A stretch of 5,699 nt of DNA, taken from the NCBI GenBank assembly GCA_018260755.1, contig JAGTWP010000072.1, positions 1 through 5,699 of the forward strand. Direction: 5' to 3'. This document shows positions 1 through 5,504 of this stretch, piece by piece. This DNA comes from Candidatus Altarchaeum sp. Its GTDB lineage: Archaea; Altiarchaeota; Altiarchaeia; Altiarchaeales; Altiarchaeaceae. A model generated the notes under the pieces. That model ran no database searches and was not told where the DNA came from. It saw nothing but the letters and a program-made list of their open reading frames with translations. A program made the translations under genes and the position numbers. Numbering within the stretch: the first letter of the stretch is position 1; the number at the start of each line of letters is the position of its first letter.

Positions 1-14
1 TCCAAACATTTTGT

Positions 15-135
15 AAGATTGAAAATCTGAATATTTTCAGTATTACAAAATTTCATTTTGAAAATACTCTCGGAATAGTTTATATATTAATAATCATAAT
101 GTATTAACATAAATTTAATACCTCTGAATAGTTAC
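15..135 (-). repeat. Degenerate copy of the dispersed palindromic repeat
   Basis: Bases 15-80 match, on the opposite strand, the left part of the larger element at 4419-4705. Shared pieces in the same order are AAGATTGAAAAT, then TTTTCAGTA, then ACAAAATTTCATTTTGAAAA followed by TAC. The copy lacks the GC-richer GAACGAAGTGAG core found in the other element. It contains two small palindromes: TGAAAAT/ATTTTCA at 20-39 and CAAAAT/ATTTTG at 46-60. A second terminal motif, CTGAATAGTTAC at 124-135, equals the right terminal repeat of the 4419-4705 element exactly. The copy may continue to the left of the window. It looks like a decayed or rearranged relative. No gene is seen here. Confidence 0.55.
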
Positions 136-151
136 AAACAATTATTTTGTA

Positions 152-2352: not shown

Positions 2353-2404
2353 ACATGTTGCGAAATAATTTTCAATCTATTGTTATTTTAAATTTATTTA
2401 AAAT

Positions 2405-2425
2405 CTCCGAGCAAAGCAAGGTGAC
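2405..2425 (+). repeat. GC-richer core motif, variant copy
   Basis: CTCCGAGCAAAGCAAGG followed by TGAC lies directly after a 9-bp-arm palindrome. Compared with the copy at 4461-4481 it is the same length and differs at four positions, all transitions (A/G or C/T). It stands out in otherwise AT-rich spacer DNA. Confidence 0.6.
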
Positions 2426-2511
2426 AATATATTCATAATAATTTCAAATTTTTTCCATCATATTTTCCAGCATAAAAAACAATTTTTTAGATTGTTTATC
2501 TGTTGTTATTG

Positions 2512-2532
2512 TAAAAACCTCCCGGGTTTTTA
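2512..2532 (+). terminator. Hairpin with oligo-T arm, possible terminator
   Basis: TAAAAACC (2512-2519) and GGTTTTTA (2525-2532) pair around the loop TCCCG, giving an 8-bp stem ending in five T. It could stop transcription from rrp4, but archaeal termination mainly needs oligo-T, and the hairpin may only be part of the repeat element. Confidence 0.3.
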
Positions 2533-2651
2533 GAATATTAAAAATACTTCAAATATTTTTAGTGTGGTATAAAATGAGGGGTATAAACTATTTCGCAACA
2601 ACTCTAATAATAATCTTTGTTTGTGGTTTGGATGAGCTGGATTGTTTTAAA

Positions 2652-4363: not shown

Positions 4364-4418
4364 CCTAAAAACATAAAATTTAAAATTGAGCATAAAACAT
4401 AAAATTTAAAAAAATTTA
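4364..4418. repeat. AT-rich spacer with CATAAAAT words
   Basis: After the deoxyhypusine synthase stop, CATAAAATTTA occurs at 4371 and 4398 (with CATAAAACATA at 4391). The words resemble the 15-bp units before rrp4 (CATAAAATTATA). There is no gene. Confidence 0.4.
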
Positions 4419-4460
4419 GTAACTATTCAGAGGGTATTTTCAAAATGAAATTTTGTAAAT

Positions 4461-4481
4461 CTCCGAACGAAGTGAGGTGAC
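4461..4481 (+). repeat. GC-richer core motif, copy 1
   Basis: CTCCGAACGAAGTGAGG followed by TGAC. Its core CGAACGAAGTGAG (4464-4476) recurs exactly at 4579-4591 and 4641-4653. The left and right flanks CTC and GTGAC match the variant copy at 2405-2425 rather than the other two copies in this element. Confidence 0.75.
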
Positions 4482-4576
4482 AAAAATTTACTGAAAATTT
4501 ATAAATAAATTTTCAATCTTAAAAAATATTTCAAATATTTTTTAATACCTACGATTTTCAAACTTGTTTGAAAATG

Positions 4577-4594
4577 CACGAACGAAGTGAGCGT
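4577..4594 (+). repeat. GC-richer core motif, copy 2
   Basis: CACGAACGAAGTGAGCGT lies three bases after the TTTTCAAAC/GTTTGAAAA palindrome. It is identical over 18 bases to copy 3 at 4639-4656. Confidence 0.8.
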
Positions 4595-4638
4595 AAAATT
4601 TCAAAAAATACAATTTCAAAAATGAAATTTTTGAACTA

Positions 4639-4656
4639 CACGAACGAAGTGAGCGT
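4639..4656 (+). repeat. GC-richer core motif, copy 3
   Basis: CACGAACGAAGTGAGCGT lies three bases after the TTCAAAAAT/ATTTTTGAA palindrome, repeating the palindrome-then-motif order of copy 2, 62 bases further on. Confidence 0.8.
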
Positions 4657-4705
4657 AAAAAATCAAAAAATTTACCTGTGATTTTTTGGGTGGCTGAATA
4701 GTTAC

Positions 4706-4733
4706 AAAATTTAAAAAATTTAAAAAATTTAAA
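4706..4733 (+). promoter_or_regulatory. Rhomboid promoter in a 9-bp-period A/T repeat
   Basis: TTT triplets at 4710, 4719 and 4728 separated by AAAAAA give a 9-bp period right up to the ATG. TTTAAA at 4710-4715 starts 24 bases before ATG 4734 and is the best TATA-like candidate. The repeat element ends immediately upstream, so its insertion would have placed it next to this promoter. Confidence 0.4.
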
Positions 4734-5504
4734 ATGAGCAAAGGACTTTTATCCTATTTCGGAATTGCAACTATTGCATTGATAGTTCTAAATGTAGTCG
4801 TATTTTTCGGTGTGCAGATGACAGATAACCTGAAAATCTATGATGAAAACTGGACGGAAAATTGTACCCAAAATAAATATATTCCTAATGCAATTTATGA
4901 AGGAGAATATTATGTGTGTCCTGAAAGTGCTGCAAGGGATGGAGGTTATGATATAAATTACTGCACAAAATTTCCCGATAATGCCTGTGTATATACTTAT
5001 ACGGATAGTTTTTCACTTGTCGGAAAAAATGCATCTGAAAAGCCATGGACATTTATAACAAGCATGTTTATGCACGCAGATATAAATCATTTACTCGGAA
5101 ATATGCTCTTTTTGTTTATTCTTGGAGGAATTGTTGAGGCGGCAATAGGAATAAGAAAGTATTTATTGCTCTATTTTTTAGCAGGAATTTTTGGAGGAAT
5201 AACTATGATTTTTATGACATCAACCGGATTCATAAGCGACAATGTTTCAATACTCGGCGCTTCCGGGGCAATATTCGGAATTCTTGCGGCGGCGGCAATT
5301 CTCAGACCAATGCAGACGGTATATGTTTATTTTCTTCCGATGCCGTTAATAATTATCGGATTAATATATATCGGGCTTCAGGTATATTACATATTCATGG
5401 GCGGAGAAGCAGGGGTTGCAAATGGCGCTCATCTCGGAGGAGCAATTGTGGGTATAATCGCGGCAATTTATCTTAGAAAGAAGGTAAAGGAGGATGAATT
5501 TTAA
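4734..5504 (+). CDS. Rhomboid-family intramembrane serine protease
   Basis: A 256-residue membrane protease that would cleave transmembrane helices of substrates within the cell membrane. Catalytic Ser177 lies in GASG (175-178) and the partner His233 in NGAHLGG (230-236). The loop-helix motif HADINHLLGN (114-123) supplies H114, H119 and the oxyanion-type N123, and GGIVEAAIG (131-139) holds the conserved Glu of helix 2. Six transmembrane segments are expected: about 9-29, 119-137, 142-162, 171-189, 197-217 and 228-247, then a charged cytoplasmic tail. The first loop is long (about 30-105) and carries four cysteines (44, 62, 77, 85) and two N-x-S/T sequons (N43, N99). Substrates are not predictable. 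The gene stands alone, with its own promoter abutting the 4419-4705 element. Confidence 0.95.
   Translation: MSKGLLSYFGIATIALIVLNVVVFFGVQMTDNLKIYDENWTENCTQNKYIPNAIYEGEYYVCPESAARDGGYDINYCTKFPDNACVYTYTDSFSLVGKNASEKPWTFITSMFMHADINHLLGNMLFLFILGGIVEAAIGIRKYLLLYFLAGIFGGITMIFMTSTGFISDNVSILGASGAIFGILAAAAILRPMQTVYVYFLPMPLIIIGLIYIGLQVYYIFMGGEAGVANGAHLGGAIVGIIAAIYLRKKVKEDEF

What the first reader, a model, noticed from the sequence alone, without database searches (positions are those of the whole stretch)
4419..4705. Modular palindrome element with terminal inverted repeats between dys and the rhomboid gene
Perfect 12-bp inverted ends, a matching 8-bp flank on both sides, six internal palindromes and three copies of one 13-nt core are packed in 287 bp. 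The order palindrome-then-motif repeats (4555-4594, then 4615-4656), as if a module had been duplicated. It has no transposase, so it would need one in trans, or it acts as a structured RNA or DNA element.
Basis: partly seen in the sequence, partly recalled or inferred. Interest (0 to 1): 0.7.

Follow-up and report, generated by a model that had tools for sequence, protein, structure and literature searches.

The report
IS66-type MITE with nested palindromic repeats
The 287-base block is a non-autonomous jumping element (a MITE) whose ends match those of an IS66-family insertion sequence in a sister Altarchaeum species, and three of its inner modules belong to a separate, tiny palindromic repeat that also sits in frame inside ordinary genes of this archaeon.

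Summary
Confirmed and largely explained. 4419-4705 is one of dozens of copies of a MITE family in an Altarchaeum-type archaeal genome. Copies share the 12-bp terminal inverted repeat GTAACTATTCAG. In 16 of 33 copies the flanks are exact 8-bp target duplications (0.6 expected). Homology stops at the ends, and the dys-rhomboid site is empty in a sister genome. The missing transposase is identified: a decayed IS66-family (ISBst12-like) element in a sister species has ends identical to this copy over 15 and 18 nt. The own genome carries 361-bp internal deletions of the same element. ISDge4, a proven-active ISBst12-group element of Deinococcus, has near-identical ends and an 8-bp duplication.

The inner 'palindrome-then-motif' module is also real, and is a separate thing: a 36-48-nt repeat (variable palindrome plus a mini-hairpin built on CGAACGAAGTGAG), with 65-130 exact cores per Altarchaeum genome. 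It explains most of the MITE size classes. It also sits in frame inside genes whose sister-species orthologues lack it, much like Rickettsia palindromic elements. No Y1/RAYT transposase was found in four genomes. The MITE is a new member of a known kind; the nested unit looks like a new archaeal variant of protein-coding palindromic repeats, with unknown mobiliser.

The parts
4411..4418 (+). left copy of the 8-bp target-site duplication (AAAATTTA)
   Evidence: identical to 4706-4713; 8 bp exact in 16 of 33 copies against shuffle mean 0.59
4419..4705 (+). MITE, 287-bp form
   Evidence: family of dozens of copies in the own genome; empty orthologous site in L058
4419..4433 (+). left end (TIR GTAACTATTCAG plus AGG), identical to the left end of the IS66-family element of G001
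   Evidence: 15/15 nt identical
4688..4705 (+). right end (GGGTGG plus TIR), identical to the right end of the same IS66-family element
   Evidence: 18/18 nt identical
4706..4713 (+). right copy of the 8-bp target-site duplication (AAAATTTA)
4437..4480 (+). nested palindromic unit 1 (palindrome plus CTCCGAACGAAGTGAGGTGA)
   Evidence: absent from the 101-, 158-, 179-, 199- and 244-bp copies
4492..4548 (+). 57-nt double-palindrome block (no GA-hairpin), absent from 101-bp copies
4554..4594 (+). nested palindromic unit 2 (palindrome plus GCACGAACGAAGTGAGCGT, 41 nt)
   Evidence: absent from 101- and 158-bp copies, present in 179-292-bp copies
4613..4656 (+). nested palindromic unit 3 (palindrome plus ACACGAACGAAGTGAGCGT)
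   Evidence: absent from 101-, 158-, 179- and 199-bp copies; the palindrome in this copy differs from the one in 244-bp copies
74..135 (-). end of a second same-family element at the contig edge: left end of the IS66-type element
   Evidence: 92% identical over 62 nt to the IS66 left end of G001

Best explanation
The block is a MITE. It consists of the two recognition ends of an IS66-family (ISBst12-like, single-ORF transposase) insertion sequence around non-coding DNA. A TnpC transposase supplied in trans binds the GTAACTATTCAG ends and inserts the element into AT-rich intergenic DNA, duplicating 8 bp (ends, duplication and same-ended IS shown; catalysis in trans inferred). The different lengths (101, 158, 199, 244, 287 bp and others) arise largely because the inside has collected units of an unrelated 36-48-nt palindromic repeat, each a variable palindrome followed by a conserved mini-hairpin. 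This repeat is dispersed in Altarchaeum genomes and also sits in frame inside genes (presence/absence shown; how the unit moves is unknown).
For: Dozens of copies with the same ends. Exact 8-bp duplications in 16/33 copies, none of 6 or 7 bp, against 0.59 expected. Ends are homology boundaries and 31 of 32 copies are intergenic. Empty site: dys-to-rhomboid gap of 70 nt in L058 against 370 nt here, with BLAST segments abutting. G001:C134:3594-5318 has the same ends around an IS66 transposase (zf-IS66, DDE_Tnp_IS66 8e-26, NF033517). The own genome has 361-bp deletion derivatives 85-88% identical to both halves of that IS. ISDge4 (ISBst12 group) has TIR GTAACTGCTCAGCA, 8-bp repeats and observed transposition (PMC12898284). 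Nested units: MITE size series; same units in genes and absent from orthologues.
Against: No intact IS66 transposase was found: the G001 copy has stops and frameshifts, and the own genome (85% complete, 78 contigs) has no PF03050 match. About half of the copies lack a perfect duplication, as expected for old or recombined copies but not proved. Movement itself was not observed; all evidence is comparative.
Confidence: 0.93

Rival explanations
1. A structured regulatory RNA or DNA element (for example a terminator or mRNA-stability element between dys and the rhomboid gene) kept by selection, with the repeats serving folding.
For: Strong predicted fold, z about -5.8; the inner mini-hairpin shows covariation; position between two co-oriented genes.
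Against: Dozens of copies at unrelated sites with target duplications; the site is empty in a sister species; no Rfam match. A MITE with inverted repeats folds well in any case.
Confidence: 0.04
2. The copies were spread by another transposase family that recognises the same TIR (for example IS6 or IS1, which also make about 8-bp duplications).
For: IS6 and IS1 also duplicate about 8 bp (general knowledge); an IS1-like transposase occurs in G002 and G003.
Against: That IS1-like element in G002 has a different TIR (CCTTACATGTTTA). The IS66 element matches both ends, including the asymmetric subterminal bases.
Confidence: 0.03
3. The inner palindrome-plus-hairpin units are not mobile but arise by local duplication and template switching within MITEs, and those in genes are unrelated look-alikes.
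For: One 48-nt insert in L023/L024 forms an inverted copy of its insertion site, and matches at a regular 48-nt spacing in G003:C124:1491-1779 suggest a tandem array, both pointing to fold-back or slippage; no Y1 transposase for the unit was found.
Against: Units with the same architecture and core occur in unrelated genes as clean in-frame insertions absent from sister species; the 13-mer is 65-130 times per genome with 0 in the reversed control.
Confidence: 0.3

Closest known systems
ISDge4 and the ISBst12 group of the IS66 family (PMC12898284)
   Same: TIR GTAACTGCTCAG against GTAACTATTCAG (10 of 12), imperfectly matching longer ends, 8-bp direct repeats, single transposase gene.
   Different: ISDge4 is autonomous and bacterial; here the element is transposase-less, in an archaeon, and filled with palindromic repeats.
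Prokaryotic MITEs (review PMC10969869)
   Same: Under 400 bp, no transposase ORF, TIRs, target duplications, multicopy, mostly intergenic, internal-deletion derivatives of an IS also present.
   Different: Interior is not derived from the parent IS; it holds several copies of another repeat, giving discrete size classes. The review text has no mention of IS66.
Rickettsia palindromic elements and CGTC/GTAG-tagged REPs (PMC3733652, PMC10969869)
   Same: Short palindromes with a conserved tag at one end, dispersed, inserted in frame in unrelated genes; the CGTC class has no dedicated transposase.
   Different: Tag here is a mini-hairpin around CGAACGAAGTGAG, not GTAG or CGTC; unit of 36-48 nt (RPE about 150 bp); archaeal host; nested in MITEs; no Y1 transposase found in four genomes.

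Membership tests
MITE of the IS66 family (ISBst12 group) | short, no transposase ORF, terminal inverted repeats | tested here: met
   287 bp, no ORF of 50 aa or more inside, perfect 12-bp TIR
MITE of the IS66 family (ISBst12 group) | multicopy, ends are homology boundaries | tested here: met
MITE of the IS66 family (ISBst12 group) | 8-bp target-site duplication | tested here: met
   16 of 33 exact, shuffle mean 0.59; IS66 makes 8-bp repeats (PMC11946415)
MITE of the IS66 family (ISBst12 group) | same ends as an element that encodes the transposase | tested here: met
   G001:C134:3594-5318: 15/15 and 18/18 nt; zf-IS66 and DDE_Tnp_IS66; that gene is decayed
MITE of the IS66 family (ISBst12 group) | intact transposase present in the same cell | tested here: not met
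   no PF03050 match in the own assembly (85% complete); only deletion derivatives. Not a defining feature of a MITE, but needed for present mobility
MITE of the IS66 family (ISBst12 group) | transposition in trans observed | not testable with these tools
   needs an experiment
Rickettsia-type protein-coding palindromic element (for the inner unit) | dispersed palindrome inserted in frame in unrelated genes | tested here: met
   insertions of 36, 42, 42, 45 and 90 nt, absent from orthologues
Rickettsia-type protein-coding palindromic element (for the inner unit) | CGTC tag at one end of the palindrome | tested here: not met
   unit ends in a CGAACGAAGTGAG hairpin
REP/RAYT (GTAG-tagged REP) | Y1 (RAYT) transposase in the genome | tested here: not met
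   PF01797 absent in G000-G003

The most novel reading that the evidence does not exclude
The 36-48-nt palindrome-plus-mini-hairpin unit nested in this MITE is an independent mobile palindromic repeat of Altarchaeum, the archaeal counterpart of protein-coding palindromic elements of Rickettsia, with its own tag (a covarying GA-flanked mini-hairpin) and spread by a mechanism not involving a Y1 transposase; MITEs act as its intergenic landing sites and vehicles.
Probability: 0.5. Interest if true: 0.65.

Novelty: new variant of a known kind. Interest (0 to 1): 0.45.

Why it matters
It ties an orphan palindrome cluster to a defined transposase family in an uncultivated archaeal lineage, and shows a MITE family growing by nested insertion of another repeat. 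The nested repeat also adds 12 to 30 residues in frame to conserved proteins, so it makes the question of how protein-coding palindromes spread directly testable in archaea, in a genus where REP-type transposases appear to be absent.

Tried and rejected
Rfam scan: nothing. IS6 (PF13610) was tried first because of the 8-bp duplication: none in the own genome; the hits in G002 and G003 have a zinc-ribbon N-terminus like IS1, and the G002 element has different ends. Y1/RAYT transposase as mobiliser of the inner unit: absent in four genomes. L198 (IS66 fragment of G002) does not show the same ends. Literature searches for Altiarchaeum transposons or repeats, and for archaeal palindromic elements, gave nothing on point.

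Full report
Observation. The window is a whole 5,699-bp contig (G000:C32) of a 1.32-Mb, 78-contig archaeal genome. Nearest named relatives by the dys protein are Altarchaeum sp. HURL_140 (93%) and Altiarchaeales archaeon A3 (91%). Genes: an AAA/DUF4143 ATPase, an Rrp4-like exosome protein, MarC, deoxyhypusine synthase (dys) and a rhomboid protease.

It is a mobile family. BLAST with the element finds 101 matching segments in the own genome. The 12-bp end occurs 120 times with at most one mismatch, against 8 for the reversed control. In the fetched stretches 33 distinct complete copies pair up, at 89-374 bp, mostly 244 and 101 bp. Their flanks are exact 8-bp direct repeats in 16 of 33, never 6 or 7 bp; re-pairing the flanks at random gives 0.59 on average and never more than 5 in 2,000 trials. 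Pairwise identity is 0.82-1.00 over the last 12-15 bp inside the ends and about 0.3-0.5 outside; 31 of 32 copies are intergenic. In L058 (HURL_140) the dys-rhomboid gap is 70 nt instead of 370, and the two BLAST segments abut: an empty site.

The partner is found. Three sister genomes carry the same ends (99, 38 and 36 exact ends in G001, G002 and G003; reversed control 0). One pair in G001 (which, by identical search hits, is the A3 genome) lies 1,725 bp apart, at C134:3594-5318, and encloses a decayed transposase. Its pieces match DUF6444, zf-IS66 and DDE_Tnp_IS66 (8e-26), and NCBI's IS66 transposase model. Its left 15 nt and right 18 nt, including the asymmetric bases inside the TIR, are identical to the window's copy. 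The own genome holds two 361-bp derivatives that keep both ends of this IS (85-88% identity) and lack its middle, and the contig's first 135 bases carry another IS66-type left end. Literature anchor: ISDge4 of Deinococcus geothermalis, ISBst12 group of IS66, TIRs GTGACTACTCAGCA/GTAACTGCTCAGCA, 8-bp repeat, seen to transpose (PMC12898284); 8-bp repeats are characteristic of IS66 (PMC11946415). So the most likely mechanism is trans-mobilisation by an IS66 TnpC; the own assembly has no intact gene, so current activity is open.

The inner modules. Aligning size classes shows discrete gains: 101 bp (no unit), 158 (+57 nt double palindrome), 179/199 (one unit), 244 (two), 287 (three, the window), 292 (a different third one); the 288-bp copy owes its length to unrelated sequence near the left end. 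A unit is a variable palindrome followed by a hairpin of the form C-GA-XY-loop-Y'X'-GA-G (loop 3-4 nt, commonest CGA-AC-GAA-GT-GAG). XY and Y'X' are complementary in 88 of 229 distinct contexts against 33 shuffled (58 of 195 against 20 without the commonest form), and outer pairs 2 and 4 also exceed shuffles, with an unpaired T-T common at position 3. Alternative stems (GC-AACA-GC, GC-GTTA-GC, AT-GCTA-AT) were not part of the search pattern that brought the loci in, so the covariation is not built in, though the context set is not phylogenetically corrected.

The unit is not private to the MITE. CGAACGAAGTGAG occurs 65, 78, 101 and 130 times in the four Altarchaeum genomes and at most 5 times in any of the other 146 archaeal genomes searched; reversed control 0 in these four. 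CCGAGCNNNNGCGAGG occurs 29, 49, 15 and 98 times, control 0. Single units lie in protein genes, read in several frames (ISERSEV, TSLRSD, LTSFGDF). Orthologues in sister species lack them: clean insertions of 42 (L205), 36 (L206), 42 (L210), 45 (L218) and 90 nt (L219, two units), all multiples of three. L214 also shows a clean 42-nt difference against one relative (L251) and a gapped one against another (L241). The comparisons L210 against L225 and L205 against L245 are not clean. No target duplication of the unit could be fixed, since boundaries are blurred by AT bases. No Y1 transposase (PF01797) was found in the four genomes. This resembles Rickettsia palindromic elements and CGTC REPs in behaviour (PMC3733652, PMC10969869) but fails their tag test, so it is not filed as a member.

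Limits. Genomes are draft MAGs; sister genomes are 65-87% complete. Copy numbers are lower bounds because contigs end in these repeats. The in-frame sample (five clean genes, chosen from cores inside open frames) is biased towards frame-keeping cases, so no rate is claimed. The literature library holds open-access papers only.

Noticed in passing
window 2357-2599: A second, different palindromic element with ends GTTGCGAAATA/TATTTCGCAAC, containing a related core (CTCCGAGCAAAGCAAGGTGAC). It is shared with L059 and about 200 bp shorter or absent in L058; similar ends (GACATGTTGCAAAATAAC) are seen in L014 and L212.
   Followed up: partly
window 1-140: Contig edge lies in another copy of the family: IS66-type left end followed by further palindromes.
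   Followed up: partly
G003:C124:1491-1779: BLAST matches at a regular 48-nt spacing suggest a tandem array of about six palindromic units.
   Followed up: no
L059 about 5160-5330: Another palindromic element with ends CATAGTATCCTCTCAA/TTGAGAGGATACTATG carrying ACGAGCAACAGCGAGTGT downstream of dys.
   Followed up: no
L020 2250-2560, L033 and L034 ends: A further repeat array of the same palindromes bounded by ...AACATAAGAGCGAAAAT, a different end type from the MITE.
   Followed up: no
L035 1647-1964: A copy of the MITE appears to contain another inserted element with ends GGACTTACGCA.../...TGCGTAAGTTC.
   Followed up: no
L174 about 1144-1885, L175 about 497-1250: IS1-like transposase with a zinc-ribbon N-terminus in G003 and G002; the G002 copy is flanked by ends around CCTTACATGTTTA.
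   Followed up: partly
G112 (also G092, G150): An unrelated archaeal genus (g69) has 13 copies of CCGAGCGTAAGCGAGG/CCGAGCGTTAGCGAGG, suggesting that the mini-hairpin repeat is not confined to Altarchaeum.
   Followed up: no
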